Below the pieces are notes generated by a model that was given only the letters and a program-made list of their open reading frames with translations, ran no database searches and was not told where the DNA came from. This document shows positions 223 to 64,000 of a stretch of DNA of 64,000 nucleotides, in pieces (the first letter of the stretch is position 1; each line of letters starts with the position of its first letter). Location of the stretch: NCBI GenBank assembly GCA_030429455.1, contig JAUIFC010000002.1, forward strand, positions 1 to 64,000, given 5' to 3'. The DNA is from Bacteroidia bacterium. Its GTDB lineage: Bacteria; Bacteroidota; Bacteroidia; Flavobacteriales; Flavobacteriaceae. The translations under genes and the position numbers were made by a program.

Positions 223-3200
223 GTGGAACGATAGTTCAAGTTGGCACAAATTCTTTTTCAATGACAGGTTTAAATCCACTTACGACATACGATATATATT
301 TGAGAGCAAATTGTGGAACAAATCCAGGGGATGATGATAGTAATTGGATTGGCCCTGTAAGTTTTACAACCCTTTGTGCAGCATTTACAGCACCATATAC
401 AGAAGATTTTGAAACCTTTACAGTATCTTCTTCTCCATTTGTAGACGAGAATTGTTGGACATCTGTTAGTGGAAATTATTATTGGGAAGTTGCAGACACC
501 GGAGATTCCTCATCCTCAGGAACTGGTCCAGCTCCTGGCGTAAGCACGGGAAATTATTTGTTTACAGAAGCTTCAAATAGTAGTTCTGGCGATACTACGG
601 ATTTAACATCTCCTCTAATCGATTTAAGCAATTTAGCTATTCCTTCGTTACAGTTTGATTATCATATGTATGGAGGCGATATGGGAACCTTAGAAGTTCT
701 TGTGAATGGAACCGATAATGTATTTACTGTTAGTGGTCAACAAAATTTTGAGAATGATCCATTTCTTAGTCAAATTATTGATTTAACTGCTTATACCAAT
801 CAGACAATTTTTGTTGTCTTTAGAGGCATTAGAGGATTCGGTTTTCAAAGTGATATCGCAATTGATAACATTAGGTTCAACGAAATGCCTACTTGTCCAG
901 ATCCTAGTAATTTATTTACATCGGGTATAACGGGATCAAGTGCCGATATCAGTTGGGATGCCGGAGGTACAGAAACACAATGGGAGGTAGAATATGGTCT
1001 TGCAGGTTTTGCGCAAGGAAACGGAACGATTGCACAAACTAATACAAATCCATTTACGTTGACGGGTCTAAATACACTTACGACATACGACATTTATTTA
1101 AGAGCCAATTGCGGATTGAATCCTGGAGATGATGATAGCAATTGGATAGGTCCTGTAAGTTTTACTACTCTACCAGATTATTGTAATGGAGATCTTTTTT
1201 ACGATTCTGGTGGCCCAAATGGCAATTATTCTAACGGCGAATTTAATACCACCACCATCTATCCTTCGGCTGGATTTAATACCGTAACCGTTGATTTTAA
1301 CTCTTTTCAAACAGAGAGTTGTTGTGATTATTTGCAGATTTTTGATGGTGTCGACACAAATGCGCCCCTTATTGGCCAATACCAAGGATTTAATAGTCCA
1401 GGTTCTGTTTCATCATCAAATGCTTCTGGTGCTTTAACATTTTTGTTTTCTTCAGATGGAAGTATTACGAGTAGTGGTTGGGAAGCTGTTGTTACTTGTT
1501 CATTCATTACTTGTCCAGAGCCTGATAATCTTGTTGTAACTAACGTAGCTGAGTCTTCTGCTGATGTCAGTTGGGATGCTGGAAGTACAGAAACTCAATG
1601 GGAGATAGAGTATGGTGTTACAGGTTTTGTGCTGGGAAGTGGAAACATTGTTCAAGTTAATACAAACCCATATACGCTATCGGGATTAAATCCTAATACA
1701 ACTTATGATGCTTACTTGAGAGCCAACTGTGGCACTAACCCAGGAGATGACGATAGTAATTGGATAGGGCCTGTAACTTTCACAACCCTTGAATTATATC
1801 CTCCTAGTAATTTGGTCTCAGAGATAACGGATGAAATAAATGGTACAGTCGAATTAAATTGGGGAGTTGCTGCTTCTATTGTTGGAGAATGGATCATAAA
1901 TTTATCAGTCAGTTGTAATGGTTTTGATGATGTTAGTGCTCCTATCATCTTTTATGACGATTTTACTTTCGAAGTTCCAAGTGAAAATTCTTCAGGGACA
2001 TGGGTGTTAACAGGCAACCAAATTGTTTTTACGTTCGATAACGGATTTCAATATACTGGAACAGTGCAAGGAAATTATATGAGTGGTACCAATGCTGCCG
2101 GTGGATGTTGGTATGCAGATCAAATTTCGACAGGTAACGATAATGCTACAACAATGGATTTTGTGGTGTCGGGTATTTCAATCAGTGGTGAAATTACATC
2201 TACTCCAAATCAAGTTTATACACATACTTTTAATCAGAATATTTCCAATAATACTGTTTCAAGTTTTAATGTGTATAGGGACAATATAGTTATAGCTTCG
2301 ACTACAGTGACTACTTACACAGATATACTTCCGGCTTACGGTACATATACCTATTATGTTACTGCTGTGTATAATGGCCTTGAGTCTGTGGCTTCAAATA
2401 CCGAAGTTGTTGTATGGTCCTCTTGTTCTGCGCCAAGTAACTTAGCGGTGACTAACATATTAGGTAATAGTGCCGATTTGAGTTGGGTTGCTGGTAGTAC
2501 AGAGACCGAATGGGAAATAGAATATGGCTTAGCTGGTTTTACTCAAGGCAGTGGAACAATTGTACCAACAAATGCCAATCCATATACACTAGCAGGATTG
2601 ACTCCAGTAACCGCATACGATGTGTATTTAAGAGCAATCTGTAGTACAAATTCTGTTGACAATAGTGCTTGGATAGGTCCAGTGTCGTTTACAACACCAT
2701 GTGCAGTTCATTTAGCTCCGTTTTATGAACACTTTGCACATACTACTATTCCAGATTGTTGGGATGAATATGGAAGTGAAAACTGGAACTTTAGCTTAGG
2801 CGCTGCATACGATGCTGCTTCGGCTGGGGATCATACTTCTGGACAGAATACACATTACGCTTGGATAGATGCTTCTTCGCCAAATGGTGCACAGCATATA
2901 AGTCACCTTAAAACAATGGATATAGATGTTTCTCAATTATCTACTCCAACCTTACAATTTTCGGTGTTTAGTATGAATACTGACGATTTTACCTACAATA
3001 CTTTAAGAGTAACTGTAAGTAATGCGGCTAATGAAACTTTGAATGTGTTAACCTTACAGGGGCCAACGAATAACTGGTCAACTTATACGATAGATTTGTC
3101 ATCTATTACATTAAATTCTAATATAATTAGGGTTGAATTTTCTATAGAAGAAAATAGCCCTGGTATTCCTTATTTTAATGATATTTTGATTGATGATGTA

Positions 3201-3473
3201 ATTGTTGATGAAAGCAGTGTGTTAAGTGTTGAAGATTTTGATAGTGATGCATTGAGCTATTATCCTAATCCTTTAACTGATGTTCTAAATGTGTCGTATT
3301 CTAAAGAGATAGACAAAGTTGAAATCTATAATGTATTAGGACAAAAACTAAAGACTTTAAATACAAGACAGAGAAATCTTGAGATTGACATGTCTTTATT
3401 TAATGCAGGAACTTACATTTTGAATATTTATTCAGAGTCCTCTCAACAAGTAATTAAGGTCATTAAGATGTAA
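1..3473 (+). CDS. Partial mosaic T9SS-secreted adhesin (FnIII/CUB/MAM-like)
   Basis: The reading frame is open at the left edge (first full codon at base 3), so this is the 3' part of a larger gene; 1157 codons are visible. It holds four fibronectin type III-like modules (bases 96-375, 888-1170, 1512-1790 and about 2410-2695), each with a WDAGSTETQWE- or WVAGSTETEWE-like strand and ending near WIGPVSFTT. It also has two MAM/jelly-roll-like modules (about 380-885 and 2700-3210) and one complete CUB-like domain (1171-1505) with paired cysteines (ESCCDYLQIFDG); the first visible residues are the end of another CUB copy. The last 75 residues (YYPNPLTDVLNV, LFNAGTYIL) are a type A T9SS sorting domain, so the product should be exported by T9SS and anchored or released at the cell surface. 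A role in adhesion or substrate binding is inferred from the modules. The nearly identical module copies are unusual. Confidence 0.9.
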   Translation, partial: NASGALTFLFSSDGSITSSGWEAVVTCSFITCPEPDNLVVTNVTESSANVSWDAGSTETQWEIEYGVTGFAQGSGTIVQVGTNSFSMTGLNPLTTYDIYLRANCGTNPGDDDSNWIGPVSFTTLCAAFTAPYTEDFETFTVSSSPFVDENCWTSVSGNYYWEVADTGDSSSSGTGPAPGVSTGNYLFTEASNSSSGDTTDLTSPLIDLSNLAIPSLQFDYHMYGGDMGTLEVLVNGTDNVFTVSGQQNFENDPFLSQIIDLTAYTNQTIFVVFRGIRGFGFQSDIAIDNIRFNEMPTCPDPSNLFTSGITGSSADISWDAGGTETQWEVEYGLAGFAQGNGTIAQTNTNPFTLTGLNTLTTYDIYLRANCGLNPGDDDSNWIGPVSFTTLPDYCNGDLFYDSGGPNGNYSNGEFNTTTIYPSAGFNTVTVDFNSFQTESCCDYLQIFDGVDTNAPLIGQYQGFNSPGSVSSSNASGALTFLFSSDGSITSSGWEAVVTCSFITCPEPDNLVVTNVAESSADVSWDAGSTETQWEIEYGVTGFVLGSGNIVQVNTNPYTLSGLNPNTTYDAYLRANCGTNPGDDDSNWIGPVTFTTLELYPPSNLVSEITDEINGTVELNWGVAASIVGEWIINLSVSCNGFDDVSAPIIFYDDFTFEVPSENSSGTWVLTGNQIVFTFDNGFQYTGTVQGNYMSGTNAAGGCWYADQISTGNDNATTMDFVVSGISISGEITSTPNQVYTHTFNQNISNNTVSSFNVYRDNIVIASTTVTTYTDILPAYGTYTYYVTAVYNGLESVASNTEVVVWSSCSAPSNLAVTNILGNSADLSWVAGSTETEWEIEYGLAGFTQGSGTIVPTNANPYTLAGLTPVTAYDVYLRAICSTNSVDNSAWIGPVSFTTPCAVHLAPFYEHFAHTTIPDCWDEYGSENWNFSLGAAYDAASAGDHTSGQNTHYAWIDASSPNGAQHISHLKTMDIDVSQLSTPTLQFSVFSMNTDDFTYNTLRVTVSNAANETLNVLTLQGPTNNWSTYTIDLSSITLNSNIIRVEFSIEENSPGIPYFNDILIDDVIVDESSVLSVEDFDSDALSYYPNPLTDVLNVSYSKEIDKVEIYNVLGQKLKTLNTRQRNLEIDMSLFNAGTYILNIYSESSQQVIKVIKM
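1417..1638 (+). repeat. Direct repeat copy 2 in adhesin gene
   Basis: Second copy of the repeat at 1-222. After about 1638 the two copies diverge quickly at the nucleotide level while the FnIII fold pattern continues, which fits a recent duplication or gene conversion confined to this block. Confidence 0.9.
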
Positions 3474-3513
3474 TGTGAATATTTTCTTTTAAGTCAACTT
3501 AAATTACAATACT

Positions 3514-3559
3514 AAAACAAGGCGTATTGAATTTCTTAAAATTCAATACGCTTTGTTTT
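3514..3559. terminator. Bidirectional hairpin terminator
   Basis: Arms 3514-3534 and 3539-3559 form a 21-bp stem with one G-U pair and a 4-base loop, followed by a T run to the right and preceded by A-rich sequence. It lies between the convergent adhesin gene and tetR-like gene and can serve both. Confidence 0.85.
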
Positions 3560-3571
3560 TTTTGATTTAGA

Positions 3572-6146
<2,575 letters not shown>

Positions 6147-6854: not shown

Positions 6855-7634
6855 TTACAAGTTTACTTCGTGAAGAATAAGACCAGAAGCTGGAGCAACA
6901 TGTTCCAGCTTTATTTTTTGGGTTCCATCAAGCGTTTTTAGAAAAAAATCATAAGTCTTCGCGTGGTTTCCAAGATCAATGAGCATGCCCATCATCAATC
7001 TTATTTGTCCGCGTTTAAAGCCTTTGCCAGTCACTTTTAACACATAAGAGGTTTTAGGAAAAAAACTAGCTGTGAGTTCTATATTTTCTTCGATTCTGCA
7101 TTCAAATATTTCAGCAATAGTATTTGTGTTTTCGTTGGGTCTAAAGGTGTAGGAGTAAAAATCTTTCTTTCCTTTAAATTGTAGAGCCGCTTTTTTCATC
7201 AGTTCTATATCCAACGAATAATTGATATTCGCCATAATTGCGGCAGAAAATGGATGAATTTTTTCGCCAAACGCAAAATAATAATGGTAAGTTTTAAATT
7301 TTGTGTCTTGAATTACATTAAAGTTTTTGTCGACCTCTTTAATGCTTAACGCTCTGATGTCTGAAGGAAGATTTAAATTGAAATTTGTCATAAACTCTTC
7401 TAAATCAATGAGCTGTTCGTTGCAAAACAATTCTAAATATGTTTGATTGGCAGAGACTTTAGCATCTGTTCTGCTGCATACCAAAACTTTGGTTTTAACC
7501 TCTGGTAAAATGTAGTTTAAAGTTCGTTTGACCATAAGCTCAACAGTTTTGACATTCGGCTGAACTTGCCAGCCGTGGTATCTAAAGCCCAGGTATTGAA
7601 ATGAGATGAGGTAATAAAAACGTTTTGGTTGCAT
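6855..7634 (-). CDS. Divergent TruA-family tRNA pseudouridine synthase
   Basis: A 259-aa protein of TruA length. The N-terminal strand YLISFQYLGFRYHGWQVQP matches the TruA opening, and the catalytic aspartate is retained in CSRTDAKVSANQ. The surrounding loop differs from the canonical GRTDAGVHA: glycine is replaced by lysine and histidine by serine. The second-half motifs (HYYFAFG, DFYSYTFR, GKGFKRGQIRLMMG) also fit TruA. It is expected to make pseudouridine in RNA, but the divergence suggests a paralogue with another site or substrate rather than the housekeeping TruA for positions 38-40. The start ATG fits the conserved beginning. Confidence 0.8.
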   Translation of the reverse strand: MQPKRFYYLISFQYLGFRYHGWQVQPNVKTVELMVKRTLNYILPEVKTKVLVCSRTDAKVSANQTYLELFCNEQLIDLEEFMTNFNLNLPSDIRALSIKEVDKNFNVIQDTKFKTYHYYFAFGEKIHPFSAAIMANINYSLDIELMKKAALQFKGKKDFYSYTFRPNENTNTIAEIFECRIEENIELTASFFPKTSYVLKVTGKGFKRGQIRLMMGMLIDLGNHAKTYDFFLKTLDGTQKIKLEHVAPASGLILHEVNL

Positions 7635-7935
7635 GAATTGTTAGTAATGCATTTTTTATTTCTGGCTATCTAAAATAGAAATTTATTATCAAAACCATAC
7701 ATAGTAATGATCAAATATATGTTACAAAAGAAAATAAAAAATAACCTATAATCAATATTCTTAAGTTTATACCATTTGTGATTTGAAATTACTGTATAAA
7801 GAAAAAAGAGCGATATATTACGGTAATTTCAAGTTATAAATGGTATTAATCCTTTCTCTTGGGTTCATGTGGTAACCATCAATAGTTTTGGCACAACAGG
7901 TCGTGCACTTTATCGGTGGGATGAAGGGTAGTTAT
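7635..7935. other. Intergenic region with hairpin repeat element
   Basis: About 300 bases without a gene. The only structure is the imperfect inverted repeat at 7769-7846 (own entry). I see no terminator with a T run and no clear promoter box for the leftward truA-like gene. Confidence 0.7.
7769..7846 (+). repeat. Dispersed hairpin element, copy A
   Basis: Arms 7769-7796 and 7819-7846 pair over 28 base pairs around a 22-base loop. Every departure from perfect complementarity (7778/7837, 7780/7835, 7782/7833, 7793/7822) is a G-U wobble when read as plus-strand RNA and would be an A-C mismatch on the other strand. The left arm recurs at 35178 and 63964. Confidence 0.85.
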
Positions 7936-8547
7936 TCAAGAATATTCAAATACATCAATCATTTTTACATGTAATTCTGGGAATAGTTTGGAAGTTATTG
8001 TTTCGTTCTTCTCTTCATAAGTTTCCAATTCTTCATATTTTCCAGTTTCTAGATAGAATATTTGAAGAGATTTTCCCTCAGGATTTGCAATCCAATACTC
8101 TTTAACACCATTTTCTTCATAGAGATTGTATTTTTCTGTGTAGTCCCTTTTTATGGTGGATGGCGAAAGAACTTCAATGATTAAATCTGGCGCACCAACA
8201 CAACCTTTGTCGTCCAATTTCGACAAATCACATACAACACAAATGTCAGGTTGTACAACGGTAACTATTTCATTATCAGATCGCCCTTTGTTTTTAATCA
8301 AACGGACGTCAAATGGAGATTCGTAAACATCACATTTACTTTTCTTAAAAAAACTTCCTATTTCTATGTGAAGATTGCTTTCTACTTTTTGGTGAATCCT
8401 TTTGGGTGCTGGACTCATTTTGTACACCCACCCTCGGATAAGTTCTACGCGTTCACTAAATTTCCAAGTGAGGTAATCTGCATATGTGTATGTTTTATTT
8501 AAATCTAGTTGAGATATGTCTGTGATTTGAGGTTTCATATCGACCAT
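7936..8547 (-). CDS. Uma2-family (DUF820) PD-(D/E)XK nuclease-like protein
   Basis: About 203 aa with the Uma2/DUF820 layout: an N-terminal YADYLTWKFSERVELIRGWVY segment as two strands and a helix, then VVQPDICVVCD and GAPDLIIEVLSPST with the PD...E-V acidic pattern of restriction-endonuclease folds, and DYTEKYNLYEENGVKEYWI. This family is widespread in bacteria and cyanobacteria; its biological role is not settled. A minus-strand TATATTTG box at 8561-8568 favours the ATG at 8547 or 8538 over the TTG at 8556. It stands alone between the truA-like and his genes. Confidence 0.8.
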   Translation of the reverse strand: MVDMKPQITDISQLDLNKTYTYADYLTWKFSERVELIRGWVYKMSPAPKRIHQKVESNLHIEIGSFFKKSKCDVYESPFDVRLIKNKGRSDNEIVTVVQPDICVVCDLSKLDDKGCVGAPDLIIEVLSPSTIKRDYTEKYNLYEENGVKEYWIANPEGKSLQIFYLETGKYEELETYEEKNETITSKLFPELHVKMIDVFEYS

Positions 8548-8560
8548 TCTATACAATAAT

Positions 8561-32552: not shown

Positions 32553-32632
32553 AAAATGGATATTAAAAAAGAAGGTCAAAATAATATTTTAATAATAATT
32601 TGCATATTATTTAAAGATTTTTTTAAATAAAA

Positions 32633-32660
32633 AAAACCCAAAGAAAAAACTTTGGGTTTT
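32633..32660 (-). terminator. Terminator for DUF4293 gene
   Basis: AAAACCCAAAG and CTTTGGGTTTT form an 11-bp stem with an A6 loop; on the minus strand it is followed by a long T tract. Confidence 0.85.
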
Positions 32661-32684
32661 GCACTAAATATACTAAGGTAAAGA

Positions 32685-33089
32685 CTATCTAAAACGATCT
32701 GCAGATTTTACAAGTTCATCATCTCTTTTGATGCCCCTAAGAGCTAATACAATACAAACAATAGAAATGAAAGGAATGATGATCCAAATACCCTTCTGCG
32801 AAAAATTAAATTCTCCAGGTAGTGTTAGCAAAGTGTATGCTAGAAAGCCTAGTACGACAGAGTTTAAAACAAAAATTGTCATACCTAACTTGCTTTGAAG
32901 ACTTCTGTTTTTATATGAAAACAAGGTCCAGAAAGAAAGAAGTATAACCAATATAAAGACAACTAAATATTCAAAAGCAAAAGACTCAATGATATTAACA
33001 AGTTGATCTATTGTTTTGAAGAAAAAAGAAGCAACAACATTAATAATGATGATAACAATTAAATAAATGCTTTGAATTCTTTGAATCAT
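32685..33089 (-). CDS. DUF4293 family four-helix membrane protein
   Basis: A 134-aa protein with four predicted membrane helices (about 5-28, 38-58, 68-92 and 98-118) and the N-terminal MIQRIQSIYLIV typical of DUF4293. Function unknown. It is divergent from rho, a neighbour arrangement I recall from other flavobacteria but cannot verify here. A minus-strand TATTTTTG box lies at 33110-33117. Confidence 0.85.
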   Translation of the reverse strand: MIQRIQSIYLIVIIIINVVASFFFKTIDQLVNIIESFAFEYLVVFILVILLSFWTLFSYKNRSLQSKLGMTIFVLNSVVLGFLAYTLLTLPGEFNFSQKGIWIIIPFISIVCIVLALRGIKRDDELVKSADRFR

Positions 33090-35177: not shown

Positions 35178-35256
35178 ATACTATTTGTGATTTGAAATTA
35201 TTGCAAAAGAAATTGAAGGCTAAGAGAAGAATTCTGCTTTAACTGTTATTTCAGTT
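35178..35256 (+). repeat. Dispersed hairpin element, copy B (degenerate)
   Basis: The left arm plus flank (35178-35214) matches the element at 63964-64000 over 37 bases with four transitions, and the first 28 bases match copy A at 7769. The right arm survives only as weak similarity near TTATTTCAGTT (35246-35256). Confidence 0.75.
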
Positions 35257-63963: not shown

Positions 63964-64000
63964 ATACCATTTGCGATTTGAAATTACTGTAAAAGAAATT
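63964..64000 (+). repeat. Dispersed hairpin element, copy C (cut by window edge)
   Basis: ATACCATTTGCGATTTGAAA and the following bases match 35178-35214 over 37 bases with four transitions and the left arm of 7769-7796. The right arm, if present, lies beyond the window. Confidence 0.8.

What the first reader, a model, noticed from the sequence alone, without database searches (positions are those of the whole stretch)
7769..7846. 28-bp RNA-type stem whose only deviations are four G-U wobbles
Every departure from complementarity between the arms becomes a G-U pair in plus-strand RNA and would be A-C in the opposite strand. Random decay would produce other mismatches, so this hints at selection on an RNA hairpin. 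It has no coding sequence and no T tract.
Basis: partly seen in the sequence, partly recalled or inferred. Interest (0 to 1): 0.65.

Follow-up and report, generated by a model that had tools for sequence, protein, structure and literature searches.

The report
Short copy of flavobacterial hairpin MITE
The hairpin is one of dozens of copies of a small jumping DNA element found across one family of bacteria; its RNA-like G-U pairs are real and appear to have been kept by evolution in the spreading element, but this copy inherited them rather than being selected here.

Summary
In detail: window 7769-7846 is a 28-bp stem with a 22-nt loop whose only four departures are G-U in plus-strand RNA, unique in the window and beyond chance. 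It is not a lone RNA gene. It is a 78-bp internally deleted copy of a 162-bp palindromic mobile element (MITE-like) with 33-, ~77- and 162-bp forms in this genome (genus of Psychroflexus maritimus) and relatives across the family. Insertions repeat a TWA target; here TTA flanks both sides.

All four wobbles are the family consensus in this genome, so they are one inheritance. Between lineages the picture differs: covariation along the whole stem (242 double-change cells, 74 in shuffles), 59 of 59 copies fold better on the plus strand, and deep branches show WC to GU 152, to AC 45. So a plus-strand hairpin seems kept in the propagating lineage. RNA versus folded single-strand DNA, and the moving enzyme, remain open. 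The window copy lies antisense to both neighbours.

The parts
7769..7846 (+). 78-bp short form of the mobile element
   Evidence: 28-bp stem, 22-nt loop; same ends as the 162-bp form (L021, L030 and others)
7769..7796 (+). 5' arm / left inverted end
   Evidence: its first 24 bases match the family left end exactly
7819..7846 (+). 3' arm / right inverted end
   Evidence: its last 24 bases match the family right end exactly
7797..7818 (+). loop; spans the deletion junction that makes the short form
7767..7769 (.). left target repeat TTA (its A is also the element's first base)
   Evidence: rule
7846..7848 (.). right target repeat TTA (its T is also the element's last base)
   Evidence: rule
6855..7634 (-). 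flanking gene, PseudoU_synth_1 domain (tRNA pseudouridine synthase)
7936..8556 (-). flanking gene, Uma2 domain
35178..35212 (+). second copy, left end only (3'-truncated)
63964..64000 (+). third copy, left part; runs on beyond the window to about contig base 64024, then diverges
32629..32822 (-). probable empty counterpart of L092's insertion site
   Evidence: 139 of 200 columns identical, with gaps near the site

Best explanation
The hairpin is a short, internally deleted copy of a non-autonomous palindromic mobile element that lives mainly in one bacterial family (Flavobacteriaceae by the named hosts). SHOWN: many dispersed copies with the same ends, a repeated TWA target, filled and empty sites, three size classes, next to no coding capacity, strong covariation along the stem, plus-strand bias of wobble pairs between lineages, and neutral-looking change of copies within the window's genome. 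INFERRED: a protein acting in trans recognises the ends (about 16 bp each may be enough, since 33-bp forms exist) and puts the element into TWA sites, and the folded plus strand (as RNA in co-transcribed messages, or as single-strand DNA during transfer) helps an element to spread or be tolerated. Selection then acts on the spreading lineage; a landed copy such as this one is released from it and drifts. I hold the element identity at about 0.95, inheritance of the wobbles at 0.95, lineage-level selection on the plus-strand fold at about 0.8, and RNA rather than single-strand DNA as the folded molecule at about 0.6.
For: Copies: 63 matches in the own genome; 105 distinct full-length copies from the loci fetched by then. 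Target repeat: middle base of TWA equal on both sides in 50 of 59 (26.6 expected) and 89 of 105 (48.1 expected), all three bases equal in 60 of 105. Insertion into a gene: in L241 the element splits a Y1_Tnp (RAYT-like) gene whose homologue in L240 is unbroken; further empty sites L185 and L125, probably window 32629-32822. Structure: 38 pairs, 30 with double changes; 94.5% of cells paired, 242 double-change cells against 74.1 +/- 9.0 shuffled and 26-50 slid; the reversed alignment gives no consensus fold and 59 of 59 copies fold better on the plus strand. Wobble bias: internal branches WC>GU 58, WC>AC 19; single-copy lineages 94, 26; 27 + 68 double WC>WC changes; terminal branches of the window genome 13, 11 with 1 double. 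Window genome, 20 paired copies plus 18 solo arms: 25, 24, p 1.0. Orientation: in tandem gene pairs 37 elements co-directional, 18 opposed, p 0.014.
Against: No autonomous partner was found. Terminal branches of another genome, G009, are strongly wobble-biased (15 against 2), so change is not neutral-looking everywhere. G-U is not in excess over what column composition alone predicts (670 observed, 707 expected); what departs is too few A-C (192 against 283) and too many Watson-Crick pairs (5701 against 5212). The plus strand is G-rich (2886 G, 1576 C), so part of the raw G-U:A-C ratio is composition (random register 905:528). Internal against all terminal branches showed no significant contrast (p 0.32); the contrast appeared after a split made later. 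The opposed positions were taken from the plus-strand consensus fold. No expression data were available.
Confidence: 0.8

Rival explanations
1. A cis-acting or trans-acting RNA of the host, selected at each site.
For: Plus-strand fold and covariation; copies tend to lie co-directional with neighbours; G009 terminal branches keep pairing (15 against 2).
Against: Window-genome arms change neutrally (25:24:42); many truncated copies; window copy antisense to both neighbours; no Rfam match near a gathering score.
Confidence: 0.08
2. Ordinary dsDNA MITE: both ends bind a transposase, arms coevolve with it or are copied onto each other, and the wobble bias only reflects left/right end differences and G-rich composition.
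For: Inverted ends, repeated TWA target, 33-bp forms that keep only the ends; composition explains part of the G-U:A-C ratio.
Against: Covariation is also strong in inner helices that are not ends (columns 58-66 with 108-116), inner G-U:A-C is 336:139, and deep branches differ from recent ones (152:45 against 79:52, p 0.0013).
Confidence: 0.25
3. REPIN-like hairpin moved as single-strand DNA by a RAYT (Y1) transposase.
For: Hairpin made of two inverted ends; compensatory changes are also reported for REPINs (PMC3116915, passages); Y1_Tnp matches in G000, G009 and G021.
Against: G015 has 43 matches to the element but no Y1_Tnp match (genome 90% complete); target bases are repeated; the one element seen beside a RAYT-like gene interrupts it; G025 has 13 Y1_Tnp matches and no element match.
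Confidence: 0.12
4. Intrinsic terminator or chance inverted repeat.
For: Strong hairpin.
Against: No T tract; dozens of homologous copies; 0 such stems in 3 simulated windows.
Confidence: 0.01

Closest known systems
ERIC (IRU/RU-1) of enterobacteria, 127 bp
   Same: Intergenic, long stem-loop, non-autonomous, inverted ends, target duplication, carried by whole families with copy number varying by lineage (PMC2229807 passages; PMC10969869 passages).
   Different: Different phylum; TWA target; size classes 162/77/33 bp. No sequence comparison with ERIC was run; no Rfam family reaches its gathering score on the element.
REPIN / REP-RAYT
   Same: Mobile hairpin from two inverted ends; compensatory changes (PMC3116915 passages).
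   Different: Repeated target bases, ends ATACC...GGTAT, and a high-copy genome without a Y1_Tnp match.
BOX / RUP / SPRITE of pneumococcus
   Same: Small interspersed repeats called parasitic, some transcribed (PMC3049150 passages incl. part of the abstract).
   Different: BOX is modular (same passages); this element is one continuous palindrome. No sequence comparison was run.
Correia/NEMIS of Neisseria
   Same: Stem-loop transcripts; 24-bp inverted ends; target duplication (PMC2229807 passages).
   Different: Host phylum and target; RNase III processing was not testable here. No sequence comparison was run.

Membership tests
MITE (non-autonomous inverted-repeat element) | Terminal inverted repeats | tested here: met
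   28-bp arms in the window copy; corresponding ends in 105 full copies
MITE (non-autonomous inverted-repeat element) | Target site duplication | tested here: met
   89 of 105 share the middle target base, 48.1 expected; exact length 1-3 bp unresolved because the outer bases of TWA deviate (15 and 25 of 105) more than the inner A/T (6 and 5 of 105)
MITE (non-autonomous inverted-repeat element) | No transposase, no long ORF | tested here: met
   one plus frame is open end to end in 2 and one minus frame in 3 of 105 copies
MITE (non-autonomous inverted-repeat element) | Cognate autonomous element with the same ends | tested here: inconclusive
   no facing pair at IS distance among matches of TWATACCAKTTNTNA in G000, G009, G015, G062 (my reading), nor around fetched transposases; assemblies are fragmented
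Structured RNA (plus strand) | Covariation above controls | tested here: met
   242 double-change cells, shuffles 74.1 +/- 9.0, slides 26-50
Structured RNA (plus strand) | RNA is made from the plus strand | not testable with these tools
   no RNA-seq; only an orientation bias of 37 to 18
REPIN / RAYT system | RAYT in the genomes that carry many copies | tested here: inconclusive
   Y1_Tnp matches in G000 (1, weak), G009, G021; none in G015 (90% complete)
ERIC family proper | Sequence homology to the 127-bp ERIC consensus | not tested
   no ERIC sequence was fetched or compared
Intrinsic terminator | T tract after the stem | tested here: not met
Any Rfam 15 family | Score at gathering threshold | tested here: not met
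   window; ten loci; on the window hairpin the best matches are microRNA models far below threshold, and none overlaps the copies

The most novel reading that the evidence does not exclude
A bacterial element with a DNA-transposon-like repeated target that can spread only if its plus strand folds as a hairpin, i.e. mobility passes through, or is gated by, a folded RNA or single DNA strand; strand-specific covariation is then a fossil record of transposition competence.
Probability: 0.2. Interest if true: 0.8.

Novelty: new member of a known kind. Interest (0 to 1): 0.5.

Why it matters
Small palindromic repeats such as ERIC and BOX are said to form RNA structure, but whether hosts or the elements themselves select for it is hard to tell. 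Here deep branches keep pairing by compensation and wobble, while copies in the window's genome change neutrally, so the two levels of selection can be told apart in principle. The family spans many genera and gives a ready test set, and it would be a useful addition to repeat and RNA libraries for Flavobacteriaceae.

Tried and rejected
Coding element: one plus frame is open in 2 and one minus frame in 3 of 105 copies. Variability by codon phase is nearly even over the whole element (0.65, 0.67, 0.59 bits) and over positions 29-81, but uneven over positions 82-134 (0.65, 0.76, 0.44); I did not follow this up, and the many stops speak against coding.

RNA-copied element of LINE type: right-end-only and left-end-only copies in the own genome were about equal by my reading (11 against 8, leaving out contig ends, a nested insertion, 33-bp forms and chance matches), so no 5'-truncation signature.

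Autonomous partner: 24-base ends with up to 3 mismatches; the 15-base pattern in four genomes; paired ends 0.7-3.2 kb apart in the loci fetched by then (best pair 8 of 24 mismatches, none convincing); DDE_Tnp_4 in the own genome (none); DDE_Tnp_1 and Y1_Tnp across 27 genus genomes (no match with copy number by eye); element ends in 25 loci, 23 of them transposase regions, and the element profile in 17 of these. None found. L029's transposase fragment beside a truncated copy belongs by its end to another repeat (my reading).

TA duplication of the IS630 type (recalled): rejected because the flanking bases repeat directly and the L185/L125 empty sites lack TATA.

First count of changes in window-genome arms (42, 35, 80) is replaced (25, 24, 42): the first included 13 solo arms with 4-8 mismatches, many of them 33-bp forms whose inner half is not homologous. 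Both counts are ungapped, so a few mismatches come from small indels (e.g. L027, L015).

The ORF test reports no element inside an ORF, but the element's own stops would hide such cases, and L241 is one; so it says nothing on insertion into genes.

Plasmids and phages: one weak partial plasmid match (Xenorhabdus, 46% of the query, E 9e-4), no phage match.

Literature: searches (listings only) showed no report of this element; the review PMC10969869 holds no word beginning 'Bacteroid' or 'Flavobacter' in its main text. That is absence from this library only.

Full report
WHAT IS THERE. Window 7769-7846 holds arms of 28 bp around a 22-nt loop. The only non-Watson-Crick oppositions are two G/T and two T/G, all wobble in plus-strand RNA. 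The plus strand folds at -34.0 kcal/mol, the minus strand at -18.3. No other place in the window has such arms at loops of 3-60 nt, and 3 simulated windows had none. No ORF of 80 aa or more covers it, and there is no T tract.

IT IS A REPEAT. The own genome gives 63 matches at E 0.001 or better, the arms of a copy often counted apart. Copies fall in three main sizes with the same ends: about 162 bp, about 77 bp (the window copy is 78) and 33 bp (L048, L050, L052, L053, L056 and a variant in L045), besides intermediate and truncated ones. The four wobble positions are the same in the consensus of the long and short forms: left arm ATACCATTTGTGATTTGAAATTACTGTAA, right arm TTACGGTAATTTCAAGTTATAAATGGTAT. 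Over these 29-base arms the window copy differs at one base, so it is close to the consensus and probably young.

IT MOVES. In 59 full-length copies the middle base of the flanking TWA is the same on both sides in 50 (26.6 expected); in 105 copies it is 89 (48.1 expected), with all three bases equal in 60. The A of ATACC and T of GGTAT deviate less (6 and 5 of 105) than the outer T and A (15 and 25 of 105), so the duplication may be 1, 2 or 3 bp. The window copy has TTA on both sides. In L241 (genome G021) the element sits inside a RAYT-like gene whose homologue in G009 (L240) is unbroken. L185 and L125 are empty counterparts of L061's site, and window 32629-32822 is probably an empty counterpart of L092's site.

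WHERE IT LIVES. 13 of 27 genomes of the genus have a match, own genome included. In the family 91 of 397 genomes match at E 0.001; only 2 candidates per genome were scored and many weak matches are short and may be chance, so this is rough. In the order 15 of 395 match at E 1e-8, two of them outside the family; in the phylum 7 of 395, all in the family (own genome included, 2 candidates scored each). In ten genomes chosen because they had matches, matches ranged from 1 to 48, with both strands of the palindrome counted and at most 40 candidates scored. Named hosts from an exact-pattern scan (29 stretches) are Psychroflexus maritimus, Flavobacterium tibetense, Polaribacter filamentus, uncultured Algibacter, Flaviramulus and Flavobacteriaceae, and MAGs labelled Flavobacteriaceae, Flavobacterium or Bacteroidia.

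THE FOLD IS REAL AT FAMILY LEVEL. The 59-copy alignment A1 gives a consensus fold of 38 pairs on the plus strand, 30 with double changes; the reversed alignment gives none, and 59 of 59 copies fold better on the plus strand, mean -46.8 against -30.7. With the structure fixed, 94.5% of cells pair and 242 cells carry double changes, against 74.1 +/- 9.0 in shuffles and 26-50 when the partners are slid. Inner helices, far from the ends, covary as well. Caveats: the structure came from the same alignment; the shuffle does not keep relatedness, the slide does. On the larger 105-copy alignment the plus strand again gives a consensus fold, but of 19 outer pairs only (-11.3), and the minus strand none.

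BUT NOT IN PLACE HERE. On a tree of 105 copies I counted changes away from Watson-Crick pairs at 71 opposed positions, as to G-U, to A-C, to other, and double WC>WC. Internal branches: 58, 19, 53, 27. Single-copy lineages: 94, 26, 96, 68. Window genome: 13, 11, 29, 1. G015: 45, 32, 63, 3. G062: 6, 7, 4, 1. G009: 15, 2, 9, 0. The four many-copy genomes pooled give 79:52, the deep branches 152:45 (p 0.0013). With 20 paired copies (long and short) and 18 solo arms of the window genome the count is 25, 24, 42 (p 1.0); a first count (42, 35, 80) contained non-homologous stretches and is replaced. G009 is an exception that may mean recent activity or selection in place. Before the split, internal against all terminal branches was not significant (p 0.32). 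Against column composition, G-U is about as expected (670, 707), A-C is low (192, 283) and Watson-Crick is high (5701, 5212).

CONTEXT. I placed 113 copies (105 long, 8 short) with a simple ORF caller: left neighbours are co-directional in 65 of 106, right neighbours in 62 of 102, and in tandem gene pairs 37 against 18. Two orthologous insertions (L136 with L153; L061 with L157) are counted twice. The caller cannot see insertions inside genes. The window copy is one of the 18 opposed: both neighbours run on the minus strand.

MECHANISM. Best reading: a non-autonomous element moved in trans through its ends into TWA sites, whose plus-strand hairpin matters for spread or for being tolerated, for example as a co-transcribed stem-loop, or as a folded single DNA strand during movement. 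The moving enzyme was not found. ERIC elements are reported to alter transcript stability depending on orientation (PMC2229807, passages), which would fit the orientation bias but was not tested here.

NOVELTY. It works like ERIC, BOX and REPIN elements and meets the MITE features tested, with the cognate transposase not found. I saw no report of it in the searches named. New member of a known kind, with unusually clear hints of the level at which selection acts.

Noticed in passing
L024, L035, L036, L044 (own genome); L029 about 3030: A second small repeat with ends like CCTGAGTTCGATTA is scattered in the same genome; in L036 it is nested in the first element, and a broken DDE transposase in L029 (IS982-like by recall) ends in a similar sequence, so it may be its source.
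   Followed up: partly
L108 (genome G151), about 2791-4830: An insert of about 2 kb with a reverse-transcriptase-like ORF (group II intron type by recall, no family search) splits one copy of the element.
   Followed up: partly
L241:1466-1628 (genome G021): A divergent copy interrupts a Y1_Tnp (RAYT-like) gene whose homologue is unbroken in G009 (L240).
   Followed up: yes
L045, L048, L050, L052, L053, L056: 33-bp forms made of the two ends alone, at least four with TWA on both sides, suggest that about 16 bp per end suffice for movement.
   Followed up: partly
L251:1209-1286 (genome G062) and L209:1003-1079 (genome G021): The short form has nearly the same deletion junction in different genera with different arms, as if the deletion recurs at short internal repeats.
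   Followed up: partly
L061 and L157: What looks like the same insertion in two genomes of the genus, within a conserved stretch that also exists elsewhere without it (L185, L125).
   Followed up: partly
positions 82-134 of the 162-column alignment: Variability by codon phase is uneven in the right half (0.65, 0.76, 0.44 bits) although almost no copy has an open frame.
   Followed up: no
L101:984-1059: A Flavo-1 RNA (RF01705, 61.3 bits) lies near an element copy in another genus.
   Followed up: no
genome G021, contig ends: Many copies sit at contig ends, so the element probably breaks short-read assemblies and copy numbers are underestimates.
   Followed up: no
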